A stretch of DNA of 64,000 nucleotides from Martelella mediterranea (GTDB taxonomy: Bacteria; Pseudomonadota; Alphaproteobacteria; Rhizobiales; Rhizobiaceae). Of this stretch, positions 31,630 through 48,600 are shown in pieces (within the stretch, counting starts at the first letter, position 1; the number at the start of each line of letters is the position of its first letter). The stretch is taken from the NCBI GenBank assembly GCA_003001975.1, contig PVUG01000001.1:186001-250000 (forward strand), written 5' to 3'. The notes under the pieces were generated by a model that saw only the letters and a program-made list of their open reading frames with translations, did not search any database and had not been told where the DNA came from. The translations under genes were made by a program, and so were the position numbers.

Positions 31630-31666
31630 GAAACGGGCGGCACCTTTCATGCCGACCGTCAGTTTA
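31630..31666 (+). terminator. Terminator copy 1 after the ftsH-type gene
   Basis: Hairpin ACGGGCGGCA / TGCCGaCCGT (31633-31658) with one mismatch, then CAGTTT. It is nearly the same as the hairpin at 31875-31900, from which it is separated by a palindromic repeat. Confidence 0.6.
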
Positions 31667-31692
31667 CCGACAAACCTATCCTTTTTACGGAC

Positions 31693-31840
31693 GTCATCCT
31701 CGGGCTTGACCCGAGGATCTAATCACCGCTCAGCACGAGCGGCGTTGGTGGTCCATAATAGATTGTTTTAAATTTATTTTTTCCGATACGCTTGTCGCGT
31801 TCATGCGTGCTTAGACCCTCAGGTCAAGCCCGAGGGTGAC
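31693..31840 (+). repeat. Dispersed palindromic repeat, copy A
   Basis: The left hairpin arm starts GTCATCCTCGGGCTTGACCC (31693) and the right arm ends CAAGCCCGAGGGTGAC (31840). They are inverted copies of each other, and each is itself a hairpin around TTGA/TCAA. A 92 bp AT-rich centre separates them. A 32-35 nt tail containing CTTTGTAGGCAGTATG leads into the second terminator copy. Core length is 148 bp versus 113 bp in copies B and C; the left flank is shorter. The stretch 31604-32082 has no gene: it holds this element, the two terminators and the AT-rich upstream region of the next gene. Confidence 0.85.
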
Positions 31841-31871
31841 GAAGGAGAACGGGGCGAGCTTTGTAGGCAGT

Positions 31872-31910
31872 ATGACGGGCGGCAACCCTCATGCCGCCCG
31901 TTTGCATTTT
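31872..31910 (+). terminator. Terminator copy 2 downstream of repeat A
   Basis: Hairpin ACGGGCGGCA / TGCCGCCCGT (31875-31900) followed by TTTGCATTTT. It repeats the hairpin at 31633-31658 with a perfect stem, 242 bp downstream. Confidence 0.75.
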
Positions 31911-38932: not shown

Positions 38933-38969
38933 AAAAGACCGCTCCGGGGTTCCGGGGCGGTCTTTTTTA
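38933..38969 (+). terminator. Terminator copy 1 after the transglycosylase gene
   Basis: Stem AAAAGACCGCTCCGGGG / CCGGGGCGGTCTTTTTT (38933-38968), a textbook intrinsic terminator 20 bases after the stop codon. It is nearly duplicated at 39171-39212. Confidence 0.9.
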
Positions 38970-39026
38970 TTGGCCGGCAGAGTATCGGACGTAGAGGTTT
39001 AGATGTGAACCTGCCCTCCCACGGGT

Positions 39027-39139
39027 GTCATGCTCGGGCTCGACCCGAGCATCCAATTCACCCAAACCATTGATCGTGAATATTTTTCGCAGACGCTCGT
39101 CGTATGGCCCTGGATCCTCTGGTCAAGCCGGAGGATGAC
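39027..39139 (+). repeat. Dispersed palindromic repeat, copy B
   Basis: The left arm starts GTCATGCTCGGGCTCGACCC and the right arm ends GTCAAGCCGGAGGATGAC. The core is 113 bp, the same as copy C, and lies 58 bp after terminator copy 1. A 32 nt tail with GTCTGTCAACAAATTG precedes terminator copy 2. The gene-free stretch 38913-39326 holds only this element, the two terminators, and about 110 bp before the prfB stop in which I see only a weak GCCGAC/GTCGGC hairpin. Confidence 0.88.
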
Positions 39140-39170
39140 GCGGTGTGTGGGACGGGTCTGTCAACAAATT

Positions 39171-39212
39171 GAAAGACCGCTCCGGGGGGGCCGGGGCGGT
39201 CTTTTTTTTATT
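39171..39212. terminator. Terminator copy 2 downstream of repeat B
   Basis: Stem AAAGACCGCTCCGGGG / CCGGGGCGGTCTTTTTTTT, an almost exact copy of 38933-38968 placed 238 bp downstream. Its A and T tracts on both sides mean it could also stop prfB transcripts arriving on the minus strand. Confidence 0.85.
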
Positions 39213-45231: not shown

Positions 45232-48200
45232 ATGGCAGACAAAATGCTCATCGACGCCTCTCATGAAGAAGAGACGCGCGTCGTCGTTGTTCGTGGAAAT
45301 CGTATAGAGGAGTTCGATTTCGAATCGCAGCACAAGAAACAGCTGCGCGGCAACATCTATCTTGCAAAGGTCACGCGGGTCGAACCTTCTCTTCAGGCCG
45401 CGTTTGTGGATTATGGCGGCAACCGTCACGGTTTTCTCGCCTTTTCGGAAATCCATCCCGACTATTACCAGATCCCGCTTGCCGACCGCGAAGCGCTTCT
45501 GAAGGAAACCAGCGAGGACGAGGACGGCGACGACAGCGAAGCCGCCGTCAGCGAACCTGCGGAAGCCTCGGAAAAGGCTGCAGAGGCCGAGGGCAAGCCG
45601 AAGCCCCGGACCCGTCGCGGCCGCGCCAAGTCGCGCTCGAAGAAGACCGACGAAACCAAGGAAACGACCGACAACGCGCAATCCGCCGAAGCCAAGACAG
45701 GTGACGACAGCGCGACGGCCGAGACCGACAAAAACGCCACGACGGAAGCCCCTGCCGAAGCGGCAGCCGCTGAAGATGTGCCCGAGGAAACCAAGAAGGC
45801 CAAGCCCCGCAGGCGCCGCAAGCCGGCTGCCAAGAAAGAGGCGAAGGCCGAAGACGATAACACGGCGGACGCTACACCCAGTGACGCACAGAGCGACAAC
45901 AGCGGCGACGGCGAAGGTTCCGACAACAAGGATAACGGCGGCCCGACGCATATGGCAGCCGAAGTCGATGCCGACACGGTTTCCGAAGATGTCGACGACG
46001 ACAGCGACGATGATGTCGAATCCGTCGGCGCCGAAGACGCCATGGAAGAGGTGCCCGACAACGGCCACCGCCGGATGCGCAAACAGTACCGCATTCAGGA
46101 AGTCATCAAGCGCCGTCAGATCCTGCTGGTGCAGGTTGCCAAGGAAGAGCGCGGCAACAAGGGCGCAGCGCTGACCACCTATCTCTCGCTTGCCGGCCGT
46201 TATTCGGTTCTGATGCCGAACACGGCGCGCGGCGGCGGCATTTCCCGCAAGATCACCAACCCGGCAGACCGCAAGCGGCTGAAGGAAGTGGCCAAGGGTC
46301 TCGAAGTGCCGCAGGGCATGGGCGTGATCCTGCGCACCGCCGGCGCCAACCGCACCAAGGCCGAGGTCAAGCGCGACTTCGAATATCTGATGCGGCTTTG
46401 GGAAAATGTCCGCTCCAAGACGCTGACATCAACGGCGCCCTGCCTCGTTTACGAGGAAGGCAGCCTGATCAAGCGCTCCATCCGCGACCTTTACAACAAG
46501 GACATCAACGAGGTCATCGTTTCCGGCGACGAGGGTTACCGCGAAGCCAAGGACTTCATGAAGATGCTGATGCCGAGCCACGCCAAGGTGGTTCAGCGTT
46601 ACCGCGACATTCATCCGATCTATTCGCGTTCCGGCATCGAGGCGCAGCTCGACCGCATGCTGCAGCCGCAGGTCACGCTGAAATCGGGCGGATACCTGAT
46701 CATCAACCAGACCGAGGCGCTGGTCGCCATCGACGTCAACTCCGGGCGTTCGACCCGCGAGCATTCGATCGAGGACACGGCGCTTCAGACCAATCTGGAA
46801 GCAGCGGAAGAAGTGGCGCGCCAGTTGAGGCTGCGCGACCTTGCCGGCCTTGTGGTCGTCGACTTCATCGACATGGAGGAAAAGCGCAACAACCGCGCCG
46901 TTGAAAAGAAGCTCAAGGAGTGTCTGAAAAACGACCGTGCCCGCATTCAGGTCGGCCGGATTTCGCATTTCGGTCTTCTGGAAATGTCGCGTCAGCGCAT
47001 TCGTGCATCCGTACTGGAATCGACCACCCAGGTCTGCAGCCATTGCGGCGGCACCGGTCATGTTCTGTCTCAGTCCTCCGTCGCACTGCATGTGTTGCGC
47101 GGCGTTGAGGAATACCTGCTGAAGAACACCACGCATAACATTACCGTGCGCACGACGCCGGAGATCGCGCCCTATCTGCTGAACCAGAAGCGCAACACCA
47201 TTGTCGATTACGAAAACCGGTTTGGCGTCGAGATCATCGTCGAGGCCGATGCCGACCTCGAGAACACCCATTTCGAGATCGACCGCCGCGATCCGGTTGA
47301 AAACCCGGTGAAGATTGAAGCACTGTTCAATCTGATCGAAGAACCGGAAGAAGATACCGCAACGGCAGCGGATGTCGACGCAGCTGACGTTTCCGACAAT
47401 GCGCCTTCGACCGACGACAGCGACAGCAATAACGGTGACAACAACGCCGACGAAGACGGCGGCCGTTCGCGCCGCAAGAGGCGTCGCCGGCGCGGCCGCA
47501 ACGGCCAGCAGAACAACGGCAATAACGCGCAGGATGACGACAACGGTTCGGAGGACAATACTCAGGACGCTGCGTCTAATTCCGATGATGACGACAGCGA
47601 CAAGCCGCGTCGCAAGCGTCGCCGTGGCAAGCGTGGCGGACGCCGCAACCGCAGCGACGACAACGCACAGCAGACCGAATCGGACAACGAAGGCGAATCC
47701 CAAAAAGAGGAAGCGCCCGCGGCGGCTGCCGTCGAGGGCACTGAAAGCGATACTGCGGTTTCCGAGATACCTGAAAAACAGGTAGCCGAAGCTGAAGCGC
47801 CGTCCGACACAACCGAGACGGAAGCCGGCAAGACATCGGGCTTTTCCGAAGAAGCAGCCGAAGTGAACCTGCAGCCGGACGAAGGGACGGTCGAAGCGAG
47901 TGTCAGCCAGCCGGTTGTCGCGGCGGAAGACGAGGCCATGGCCGAGATCGAAGGCCGCAAACCGCGCCGTCGCCGCAAGCCGAAGGCCGAGAAGGCAGAG
48001 GCCGTGACGCAGGAGGCCGAGAAGTCCGAAGCAACGGCAGACGCCAAGCCGGAGGCCGCAGAAGAGACCGCGCCGAAGACCGAGGCTCCTGCCGTCGAGG
48101 AGACGGCCGTGGCCAGCACGGAAGCCGAACCGGAGCCTGTGGAAGCGTCGGTCGAGGCTGAAACGGAAGACGATGGTACAAAACGCGCCAACCGAGGCGC

Positions 48201-48306
48201 GGACGTCGCCTCGTCGGAACCGGTAGTTACATCCAACGGTAGCGAAAACGACGACGAGCCGTCCAAGCCGAAACGCGGCTGGTGGCAGCGCCGCGGCTTC
48301 TTCTGA
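45232..48306 (+). CDS. rne: Ribonuclease E
   Basis: A 1024-residue endonuclease, core of the RNA degradosome. The N-terminal S1 domain starts at about residue 36 (RGNIYLAKVTRVEPSLQAAFVDYG) and is interrupted at about 92-280 by a low-complexity insertion of acidic and Lys/Arg blocks (for example DEDGDDSEAA, KPRRRRKPAAKKEAK), as is common in alphaproteobacterial RNase E. The DNase I-like catalytic centre has its magnesium Asp residues in AIDVNSGRST and VVDFIDMEE; the zinc-link is CSHCGGTG. The C-terminal ~350 residues are disordered with Arg-rich patches (SRRKRRRRRGRNG) and end in KRGWWQRRGFF. GAGGAGC lies a few bases before the ATG. Confidence 0.96.
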   Translation: MADKMLIDASHEEETRVVVVRGNRIEEFDFESQHKKQLRGNIYLAKVTRVEPSLQAAFVDYGGNRHGFLAFSEIHPDYYQIPLADREALLKETSEDEDGDDSEAAVSEPAEASEKAAEAEGKPKPRTRRGRAKSRSKKTDETKETTDNAQSAEAKTGDDSATAETDKNATTEAPAEAAAAEDVPEETKKAKPRRRRKPAAKKEAKAEDDNTADATPSDAQSDNSGDGEGSDNKDNGGPTHMAAEVDADTVSEDVDDDSDDDVESVGAEDAMEEVPDNGHRRMRKQYRIQEVIKRRQILLVQVAKEERGNKGAALTTYLSLAGRYSVLMPNTARGGGISRKITNPADRKRLKEVAKGLEVPQGMGVILRTAGANRTKAEVKRDFEYLMRLWENVRSKTLTSTAPCLVYEEGSLIKRSIRDLYNKDINEVIVSGDEGYREAKDFMKMLMPSHAKVVQRYRDIHPIYSRSGIEAQLDRMLQPQVTLKSGGYLIINQTEALVAIDVNSGRSTREHSIEDTALQTNLEAAEEVARQLRLRDLAGLVVVDFIDMEEKRNNRAVEKKLKECLKNDRARIQVGRISHFGLLEMSRQRIRASVLESTTQVCSHCGGTGHVLSQSSVALHVLRGVEEYLLKNTTHNITVRTTPEIAPYLLNQKRNTIVDYENRFGVEIIVEADADLENTHFEIDRRDPVENPVKIEALFNLIEEPEEDTATAADVDAADVSDNAPSTDDSDSNNGDNNADEDGGRSRRKRRRRRGRNGQQNNGNNAQDDDNGSEDNTQDAASNSDDDDSDKPRRKRRRGKRGGRRNRSDDNAQQTESDNEGESQKEEAPAAAAVEGTESDTAVSEIPEKQVAEAEAPSDTTETEAGKTSGFSEEAAEVNLQPDEGTVEASVSQPVVAAEDEAMAEIEGRKPRRRRKPKAEKAEAVTQEAEKSEATADAKPEAAEETAPKTEAPAVEETAVASTEAEPEPVEASVEAETEDDGTKRANRGADVASSEPVVTSNGSENDDEPSKPKRGWWQRRGFF

Positions 48307-48326
48307 GCCGAGGAAAATATCTGAAA

Positions 48327-48364
48327 CAAAAACGCCGCCGTTTCGATAACGGCGGCGTTTTTGT
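48327..48364 (+). terminator. Terminator copy 1 after rne
   Basis: Stem AAAACGCCGCCG-TTTCGATAA-CGGCGGCGTTTTT, 25 bases after the rne stop. The inner part GCCGCCGTTTCGATAAC recurs at 48569. Confidence 0.9.
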
Positions 48365-48421
48365 TTGTTGGCAACCCCGAAGACGTGCGGGTTGTTGCCT
48401 CCACCAGCCGTTCCCACAGGT

Positions 48422-48534
48422 GTCATGCTCGGACTTGATCCGAGCATCCATTCCACTCAACCCTTTGACAAGAAAGGGTTTCAAGAAAGCATACACGTGT
48501 GGCCCTGGATCCTCGGGTCAAGCCCGAGGATGAC
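48422..48534 (+). repeat. Dispersed palindromic repeat, copy C
   Basis: The left arm starts GTCATGCTCGGACTTGATCC and the right arm ends GTCAAGCCCGAGGATGAC. The core is 113 bp, with an inner hairpin ACCCTTT/AAAGGGT in its centre. As in copy B, 58 bp separate terminator 1 from the core and 32 nt separate the core from terminator 2; the tail reads GCTTTGTCAGCAGTCTG. The gene-free stretch 48307-48636 holds only the two terminators and this element. Confidence 0.9.
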
Positions 48535-48565
48535 TCTGATTGAGGGGCAGCTTTGTCAGCAGTCT

Positions 48566-48600
48566 GAAGCCGCCGTTTCGATAACAGCGGCTTTTTTTCG
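48566..48600. terminator. Terminator copy 2 downstream of repeat C
   Basis: Stem AAGCCGCCG-TTTCGATAAC-AGCGGCTTTTTTT. It repeats 22 of 23 central bases of the rne terminator, 235 bp downstream. It may also stop the convergent aminotransferase gene, whose stop codon is 37 bp away. Confidence 0.82.

What the first reader, a model, noticed from the sequence alone, without database searches (positions are those of the whole stretch)
48327..48600. A palindromic repeat family inserted between duplicated copies of host terminators
Three intergenic repeats in this window (31693-31840, 39027-39139, 48422-48534) share inverted arms (GTCATGCTCGGGCTTGA... and ...TCAAGCCCGAGGATGAC) and a tail like CTTTGTCAGCAGTCTG. 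Every copy is flanked on both sides by a terminator hairpin. The hairpins differ between loci but are nearly identical within a locus (here GCCGCCGTTTCGATAAC occurs at 48334 and 48569). Start-to-start distances are 242, 238 and 235 bp; the core-to-second-terminator distance is about 32 nt each time; the upstream gene is always read toward the left arm. Constant geometry with locus-specific flanks points to a non-autonomous element that targets intrinsic terminators and duplicates 30-40 bp of them, or that copies them by an RNA-linked process. Palindromic repeats such as REP, RIME and Bru-RS are known from rhizobia and Brucella; I do not know a described terminator-duplicating class.
Basis: partly seen in the sequence, partly recalled or inferred. 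Interest (0 to 1): 0.78.

Follow-up and report, generated by a model that had tools for sequence, protein, structure and literature searches.

The report
Hairpin-duplicating IS1182-type miniature transposon
The repeats are short mobile DNA elements, built like the ends of a known jumping gene (IS1182 family), that insert into the hairpins that stop transcription and leave a copy of the whole hairpin on both sides, so the length of the duplication appears to be set by the hairpin rather than by the enzyme.

Summary
The three repeats are about 206-215 bp MITEs with ends like CAGACTGCTGACAAA, an inverted pair of CGTC-REP-type arms inside, and a copy of the host hairpin on each side. Same-locus flank similarity exceeds the shuffled 99th percentile for 83 of 146 end hits in the genus. 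Orthologous sites without the element show no second hairpin copy: 12 of 12 at site 2, 9 of 9 readable at site 3. The same ends bound ~1.5 kb IS1182-family elements elsewhere, with whole-hairpin duplications in 31 of 44 loci by a strict rule. Nine identical copies in Mesorhizobium sophorae sit in nine different hairpins; a filled/empty pair in Rhizobium ruizarguesonis shows one 24-bp hairpin becoming two. The duplication is centred on the hairpin dyad in 58 of 61 cases and 2-4 nt longer than the G+C stem-loop in 43 of 58; permutations reach at most 26. Best reading: the transposase attacks both 5' feet of an extruded hairpin. IS1272 (IS1182 family) also targets hairpins but deletes them; duplication was drawn as hypothetical. 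New variant of a known kind.

The parts
31633..31659 (+). site 1: left copy of the target hairpin (duplicated)
   Evidence: 27 nt, 85% identical to 31875-31901
31660..31874 (+). site 1: MITE, 215 bp; diverged ends CAGTTTACCGACAAACC (31660-31676) and GCTTTGTAGGCAGTATG (31858-31874); arms 31693-31720 and 31813-31840
   Evidence: left end 4 mismatches to the 15-mer, right end 3
31875..31901 (+). site 1: right copy of the hairpin
38934..38965 (+). site 2: left copy of the terminator hairpin
   Evidence: 12 of 12 other genomes of the genus have no second copy
38966..39171 (+). site 2: MITE, about 206 bp; left end no longer recognisable, so this start is approximate; right end GTCTGTCAACAAATTG (39156-39171); arms 39027-39054 and 39112-39139
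39172..39204 (+). site 2: right copy of the terminator hairpin, followed by a T tract
48332..48358 (+). site 3: left copy of the terminator hairpin, downstream of an RNase E-like ORF (45232-48306)
   Evidence: the name RNase E is my reading of the ORF, from no family search
48359..48566 (+). site 3: MITE, about 208 bp; left end decayed, so this start is approximate; arms 48422-48449 and 48507-48534
48550..48566 (-). site 3: intact right terminal inverted repeat (read on the - strand CAGACTGCTGACAAAGC)
48567..48593 (+). site 3: right copy of the terminator hairpin, followed by a T tract
   Evidence: no second copy in the 9 other readable genomes that lack an element there

Best explanation
The repeats are non-autonomous MITEs that share their ends (CAGACTGCTGACAAA) with a subgroup of IS1182-family insertion sequences. 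Shown: element ends, whole-hairpin duplication, sites without the element that have one hairpin, identity of the autonomous relative, and a duplication centred on the hairpin dyad whose length follows the G+C stem-loop. [quoted passage not shown] The feet lie close together at the four-way junction whatever the arm length, so gap filling duplicates the whole stem-loop and its length sets the duplication. Consequence from the sequence: in the IS set the A tract stays only before the left copy and the T tract only after the right copy, so each direction of transcription keeps one complete terminator, at the far side of the element. Also inferred: the MITEs were moved in trans by such a transposase. 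Step confidence: IS1182-type MITE with hairpin duplication about 0.93; cruciform-foot attack about 0.6.
For: Ends plus duplicated hairpins in MITEs. Autonomous relatives: 11 end hits in G119, each next to a hairpin by eye; an internally shortened copy in G042 with a 20-bp hairpin repeat; 80 loci in named genomes (best 80 of 151), of which 60 gave both ends: 31 a strict repeat of 18-28 bp, 13 none by that rule, 15 lacked flank, 1 was a duplicate. IS1182 family by NF033551, PF13751 and PF05598. Nine identical 1551-bp copies in M. sophorae in nine hairpins. Repeat centre equals hairpin dyad within 1 nt in 58 of 61; repeat minus G+C stem-loop is 2-4 nt in 43 of 58 (IS 27 of 30, MITE 16 of 28), permutations mean 15.3, maximum 26 of 58. 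Hairpin 3' foot 0-2 nt from the element in 62 of the 62 IS left flanks that pass the hairpin threshold, of 70. Split tracts: T>=5 of 8 after the right copy in 19 of 31 IS and after the left in 0; A>=5 before the left copy in 24 and before the right in 0; for 42 MITEs the figures are 19, 0, 19 and 2. Sites without the element.
Against: No autonomous copy with these ends was found in the 13 held genomes of the genus (best transposase 35% identical, with other ends). 13 of 44 distinct IS loci with both flanks fail the strict repeat test: by eye 3 are hairpin repeats with a mismatch at the edge, 3 are diverged or unclear, and 7 have unrelated sequences, mostly other hairpins, left and right, best read as recombinants (one shares its right flank with a filled site in another species). 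63 of 146 MITE end hits do not pass the flank-similarity threshold, and 67 of 146 left flanks do not pass the hairpin threshold. Five loci (6 of 82 scored pairs, 7 more being ties) have the second hairpin closer to the inverse of the first. Correlation of repeat length with hairpin core is only r = 0.51 in the 58 centred cases and 0.45 in all 61, because A/T pairs or outer G/C pairs blur the core; in MITEs 12 of 28 fall outside 2-4 nt. No biochemistry.
Confidence: 0.82

Rival explanations
1. Fixed long-stagger transposase: the enzyme always makes a roughly 20-25 bp staggered cut and merely prefers terminators, so the match between duplication and hairpin is a coincidence of typical terminator size.
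For: Duplications cluster (IS mean 21.7, sd 2.3); long target duplications (16-17 and 27-28 bp) are tabulated in the IS1202 family.
Against: Nine identical elements in one genome: seven have strict repeats of 20-24 bp and two, by eye, of about 17 and 19. Length tracks the stem-loop (43 of 58 within 2-4 nt, permutation maximum 26). MITE repeats with at most 2 mismatches span 11-31 bp (the 11-bp one is doubtful). The transposase is IS1182-type by profile.
Confidence: 0.12
2. Same outcome, different substrate: the target is a hairpin on single-stranded DNA (lagging-strand template or displaced strand at a terminator) and not a double-stranded cruciform.
For: Terminators are transcribed and would fold in any single strand (established knowledge); most IS target hairpins are bounded by A and T tracts.
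Against: A DDE transposase joins two ends to two strands; duplication symmetrical about the dyad in 58 of 61 fits symmetric attack on both strands better. Orientation against replication was not tested.
Confidence: 0.25
3. Tandem terminators existed first, and the element inserted between them or gene conversion made them alike.
For: A few loci have two different hairpins; bacteria can have tandem terminators (general knowledge).
Against: Sites without the element have no second copy: 12 of 12 at site 2, 9 of 9 at site 3, and three plasmid records at two IS sites.
Confidence: 0.02
4. RNA-linked copying of the terminator (retro-element, group II intron-like).
For: Class C group II introns sit next to terminator hairpins (recalled, not from a call).
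Against: Inverted terminal repeats, hairpin on both sides, and an IS1182 DDE-type transposase in the autonomous form.
Confidence: 0.01

Closest known systems
IS1272 / TnSha1 (IS1182 family, staphylococci; PMC5678879 abstract and passages, PMC4923244 abstract and passages)
   Same: IS1182-family transposase; targets stem-loops, several of them mapped terminators, with no shared primary sequence.
   Different: IS1272 removes all or part of the stem-loop and leaves no target duplication; here the whole stem-loop is kept on both sides. Wan et al. drew whole-stem-loop duplication only as a possible 'pathway b'.
IS1182 family in general (NF033551; ISPse1 of Paracoccus, PMC3281130 passages)
   Same: Transposase profile, size about 1.5 kb, terminal inverted repeats.
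   Different: ISPse1 is tabulated with a '4' in what appears to be the direct-repeat column. A 2025 paper says that these transposases act with or without duplication or deletion at the target (PMC12056078 passages). I recall, from no call, that ISfinder lists direct repeats up to about 60 bp for this family.
IS1202 family long-duplication group (PMC10132070 passages and section 17)
   Same: Unusually long target duplications (16-28 bp).
   Different: Different transposase; one duplication length is tabulated per element; no hairpin or terminator target in what I read (the word terminator does not occur in that text).
CGTC-tagged REP elements (PMC3733652 passages)
   Same: The two inner arms start with (C/T)GTC, have a 9-bp stem, 5-nt loop and CC(A)-like tail, and form an inverted dimer; such repeats are common in Alphaproteobacteria (compared by eye).
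   Different: CGTC REPs were reported without a transposase; here some lie inside IS1182-type MITEs (8 of 30 loci examined, of 189 arm matches, have an end within 95 nt; one arm was read twice).
RIME, ABC, Bru-RS repeats of rhizobia and Brucella
   Same: Palindromic intergenic repeats of similar size (recalled).
   Different: Not compared here; only a search listing was seen.

Membership tests
MITE (non-autonomous, IS-derived) | terminal inverted repeats shared with an autonomous element | tested here: met
   in the window one end is exact (48552-48566), site 1 ends are diverged, left ends at sites 2 and 3 have decayed
MITE (non-autonomous, IS-derived) | flanking target duplication and sites without the element | tested here: met
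MITE (non-autonomous, IS-derived) | mobilised in trans by the partner transposase | not testable with these tools
   no partner with these ends found in 13 genomes of the genus
IS1182 family (the autonomous relatives) | IS1182-type transposase | tested here: met
   NF033551 470.5 bits against cut-off 270; PF13751, PF05598, PF01609; annotated so in three Rhizobium plasmids, as 'transposase' in a fourth
IS1182 family (the autonomous relatives) | about 1.3-2 kb element with terminal inverted repeats and one ORF (sizes recalled) | tested here: met
   1473-1552 bp in most loci, 461-aa ORF in L136
IS1272-type stem-loop replacement | target is a hairpin | tested here: met
IS1272-type stem-loop replacement | hairpin deleted, no target duplication | tested here: not met
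   hairpin present on both sides, filled/empty pairs
IS1202 family | IS1202-type transposase | tested here: not met
   the IS1182 profile passes its cut-off; a generic ISNCY profile (44 of 325 bits needed) and two IS5 profiles stay below theirs; no rve domain listed. No dedicated IS1202 profile was tried
CGTC REP (inner arms) | CGTC-type head, 8-9 bp stem, 4-5 nt loop, CCA-like tail, inverted dimers | tested here: met
   arm sequences compared by eye with the description; 189 arm matches in the genome
RIME / Bru-RS | published consensus | not tested

The most novel reading that the evidence does not exclude
A DDE transposase that uses the foot of a folded hairpin as its target, so that target-duplication length is measured by the target's own secondary structure; this would be the realised form of the hypothetical stem-loop-duplicating pathway. 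It has seeded a genus with terminator-duplicating MITEs that also disperse CGTC REP dimers, repeats reported without a transposase of their own.
Probability: 0.58. Interest if true: 0.8.

Novelty: new variant of a known kind. Interest (0 to 1): 0.7.

Why it matters
Target-duplication length is normally a fixed signature of a transposase. Here one element gives different lengths, each close to the stem-loop it hit, which makes cruciform or hairpin recognition testable by sequencing junctions. It also shows a low-damage niche: inserting at the foot of a terminator duplicates the hairpin and leaves each transcription direction one whole terminator. It supplies one way by which CGTC palindromic repeats, reported without a transposase, can spread. 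Such elements could report which terminators extrude hairpins in living cells.

Tried and rejected
Rejected: an IS1202-type parent (long duplications recalled first; the transposase found is IS1182-type). Rejected: RNA-linked copying and pre-existing tandem terminators (see rivals). Rejected: 'upstream gene always faces the left arm' as a rule (crude ORF calls, 22 of 42 MITEs and 2 of 31 IS lacked flank). Led nowhere: a plasmid search with a MITE left end found four Rhizobium records, matching mainly the arm; the own-genome IS1182 gene (C30, L105/L320) has other ends and no paired hairpin that I could see. The full stem including A/T tract did not correlate with duplication length in the IS set (r = 0.16, 0.25) and did so weakly in the MITE set (r = 0.43); the G+C core did better in both. 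Strict duplication rules undercount: 92 of 146 MITE hits were listed as without an ungapped copy (12 more were second ends of counted elements), many of which have a visible hairpin copy with an indel.

Literature: ten searches and passages of seven papers (PMC10132070, PMC5678879, PMC4923244, PMC3281130, PMC3733652, PMC12056078, PMC1525189). None of the listings or passages that I read reports stem-loop-duplicating insertion as observed; subscription reviews on IS1182 were not held.

Full report
WHAT WAS CHECKED. The three repeats named in the finding are real. At 48327-48600 a hairpin GCCGCCGTTTCGATAAC... stands at 48334 and again at 48569 (29 nt, 93%); the other loci have hairpin repeats at 31633/31875 (27 nt, 85%) and 38934/39172 (38 nt, 74% ungapped), with spacings 235, 242 and 238. 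Inverted arms lie at 48422/48507, 31693/31813 and 39027/39112. The window is part of a 4.63 Mb draft genome in 46 contigs.

ANATOMY. A search of the own genome with the 149-bp core gave 59 matches (40 of 145 candidates were scored). Printing the flanks of the first 30 loci showed that in many of them the element is longer than the arms: it starts with CAGACTGCTGACAAA and ends with the reverse complement or a near form of it, and directly outside each end stands the same hairpin. A pattern search for the 15-mer found 66 places in the own genome at up to 2 mismatches against 7 for the reversed pattern. Several sub-families differ in their inner part and length but share the ends and, where both ends could be read, usually the paired hairpins. 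In 13 genomes of the genus the 15-mer with at most one mismatch occurs 4 to 82 times each (49 in the own genome, 82 in G008); the reversed control occurs once in one of them. None of the four hits in G003 has a duplicated hairpin, and some hits elsewhere also look like chance.

STATISTICS ON THE PAIRED HAIRPINS. For 146 distinct end hits (loci L001-L104 and L214-L273, without L061 and L062 of other families and hits too near a locus edge; both ends of one element can count separately), the left flank was compared with the region beyond the element. The same-locus score exceeds the 99th percentile of shuffled pairs in 83 of 146; 0.6% of shuffled pairs do; for the own genome 26 of 48. A hairpin stronger than the 99th percentile of shuffled flanks stands at the left end in 79 of 146, with its 3' foot 0 or 1 nt from the element in 70 of those 79. 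By a strict ungapped rule 42 elements have a duplication of 11-32 bp (mean 23.4, sd 4.2).

SITES WITHOUT THE ELEMENT. In the other 12 genomes of the genus the 330 nt after the gene upstream of site 2 hold a hairpin with no second copy (best second-copy scores 6.5-11.5, against 28.5 in the own genome). At site 3, downstream of the RNase E-like gene (45232-48306), the end of that gene was found in 11 of 13 loci (two candidate places in G010, neither with a second copy). Only the two with an element (own genome and G009) have a second copy (scores 25.0 and 25.5); the other 9 have none (6-11). The gene neighbourhood of site 1 has changed too much to judge. G005 carries another MITE in a hairpin of the site 2 region, and the orthologous stretch of G008 shows that hairpin once.

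THE AUTONOMOUS RELATIVE. A 16-mer search of 150 genomes of the order found the ends in 4 (own included), among them G119 with 11 hits, all near contig ends, each next to a hairpin by eye and reading into an ORF. In G042 a copy with an internally shortened ORF is bounded by GCGGCGAGACATCTCGCCGC on both sides. A scan of named genomes with that protein found 151 relatives; the best 80 were kept, mostly rhizobia and relatives, also Sphingomonas, Kiloniella and Marinobacter. The intact protein is an IS1182-family transposase: NF033551 470.5 bits against a cut-off of 270, with PF13751, PF05598 and PF01609. The elements are about 1.5 kb with ends CAGACTGCTGACAAAC...GTTTGTCAGCAGTCTG or near forms. Of the 80 loci, 20 lacked two recognisable ends, 15 lacked flank, 1 was a duplicate, 13 had no duplication by the strict rule and 31 had one of 18-28 bp. 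Of the 13, by eye, 3 (L137, L140, L160) are hairpin duplications with a mismatch at the edge, 3 (L181, L188, L208) are diverged or unclear, and 7 differ on the two sides. One of the 7 (L145) has the right flank of a site that is filled, with a 25-bp identical duplication, in Rhizobium sp. Q54 (L316), as recombination between copies would leave.

FILLED AND EMPTY WITHIN A SPECIES. Eleven Rhizobium plasmid records in PLSDB match this IS, six over at least 80%. Four full copies that I read have the hairpin on both sides. R. ruizarguesonis RCAM 1026 has the IS between two copies of AGCCGCCATGTTTCCATGGCGGCT; strain TP15 of the same species has one copy and no IS, as does TP33. Rhizobium sp. NLR16a is filled where R. 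anhuiense T24 has one hairpin, with one base more in its loop.

THE DUPLICATION IS MEASURED BY THE HAIRPIN. For 31 IS and 30 MITE insertions with good duplications the hairpin of the rejoined site was sought without reference to the duplication's length. The duplication is centred on the hairpin dyad within 1 nt in 58 of 61; among these its length correlates with the G+C stem-loop (r = 0.51; 0.45 over all 61). Duplication minus G+C stem-loop is 2-4 nt in 43 of 58 (IS 27 of 30, MITE 16 of 28); permuting lengths among loci gives a mean of 15.3 and a maximum of 26, 0 of 5000 reaching 43. In M. sophorae nine copies of 1551 bp without a single difference sit in nine different hairpins; seven have strict duplications of 20-24 bp and the other two, by eye, of about 17 and 19. 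So one and the same element gives different lengths. Of 70 distinct left flanks of the IS set, 62 pass a hairpin threshold and in all 62 the 3' foot is 0-2 nt from the element; of the other eight, six look like weaker hairpins by eye and two (L163, L191) do not.

WHAT HAPPENS TO THE TERMINATOR. Among 31 IS insertions the 8 nt before the left copy hold at least five A in 24 and the 8 nt before the right copy in none; the 8 nt after the right copy hold at least five T in 19 and after the left copy in none. For 42 MITEs the figures are 19, 2, 19 and 0. Many targets thus look like two-way terminators. The hairpin is doubled but each tract remains once, so rightward transcription has a complete terminator only beyond the element, and leftward likewise. 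That transcripts end there is inference.

MECHANISM. Shown: ends, duplication, sites without the element, family of the autonomous relative, dyad symmetry, length dependence. Established knowledge: DDE transposases join the two 3' ends of the element to the two target strands, and the distance between the joined positions becomes the duplication. Inferred: in an extruded hairpin pair the two 5' feet lie next to each other at the junction whatever the arm length; attack there and gap repair duplicate the whole arm. Wan et al. 2017 (PMC5678879; abstract and passages read) drew exactly this as 'pathway b', beside the loss of the stem-loop that they found for IS1272. Inferred too: the MITEs were moved by such an enzyme. 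None with matching ends was found in the 13 genomes of the genus: the only full-length relative (C30 of the own genome) is 35% identical and has other ends, and G003 holds short fragments of 61-67% identity.

COMPARISON WITH WHAT IS KNOWN. IS1272 and TnSha1 insert into hairpins, several of them mapped terminators, and delete them wholly or in part without a target duplication (PMC4923244 and PMC5678879). Both papers cite a 2015 review for palindrome targeting by some IS1182 members; that review was not held. A 2025 paper states that IS1182-related transposases act with or without duplication or deletion and may recognise a sequence or a structure (PMC12056078 passages). IS1202-family elements have long duplications, one length tabulated per element (PMC10132070). 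The inner arms fit CGTC REPs, which were reported as lacking a transposase (PMC3733652 passages); 189 arm matches lie in the own genome, and 8 of 30 loci examined have a MITE end within 95 nt on the outer side (4 of 600 shuffled; one arm was read twice), so only part of them lie in recognisable MITEs. I found no report of whole-hairpin duplication as observed in ten searches and the passages read; ISfinder itself could not be searched.

VERDICT. Observation confirmed; interpretation in essence right. New variant of a known kind: an IS1182-type element and its MITEs that duplicate, and do not delete, the hairpin they target.

Noticed in passing
L013 (= L045), L015, L026, L046, L082 (and the other junction in L009, L014, L025): A multi-copy IS, not identified here, sits at the same spot of the palindromic arm (GAGGAT|TGTTTGTT...), and several contigs end a few hundred bases into it: an IS that seems to target these REP arms. 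L051, L053 and L054 show another one at GTCATC|AACTCTGTTG. REP-targeting ISs are reported in Sinorhizobium (PMC1525189 passages).
   Followed up: partly
L055, L246, L247, L262, L268; and L277 (G009 at site 3): The second hairpin copy matches the reverse complement of the first better than its direct form (loop inverted): 6 of 82 scored pairs, 5 loci, 69 direct, 7 ties; L268 is marginal and scores as direct. By eye also at site 3 in G009. Probably loop inversion after insertion.
   Followed up: partly
48324-48366 and 38934-38971; L277: At sites 2 and 3 the left hairpin copy has a T tract where the decayed element end should be; at site 3 A and T tracts form a perfect 19-bp inverted repeat. It looks like palindrome correction that rebuilt a complete terminator.
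   Followed up: no
L277 (G009), orthologue of site 3: The same terminator carries a MITE of another sub-family in a second species, also with a hairpin on both sides: either a hot spot or an exchange of the inner part.
   Followed up: partly
L105/L320 (G000 C30, 15934-17229): The own genome has one intact IS1182-type transposase ORF (470 aa) with different ends (GATGGTGTTGAAAAACTCGAC, 21 nt, 95%) and no paired hairpin that I could see.
   Followed up: partly
L109 (G007), 1257-2026: A shortened IS1182-like element with ends CAGRCTGCTGCAAAAC, close to the MITE ends but not the same.
   Followed up: no
L067, L084 (G011, G002): A single exact element end directly after a hairpin, with no second end found: possible relic.
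   Followed up: no
L140, L142, L143 (M. sophorae): Among otherwise identical insertions the one or two bases at the element border differ between the two hairpin copies, as if a base or two of the donor flank had travelled along.
   Followed up: no
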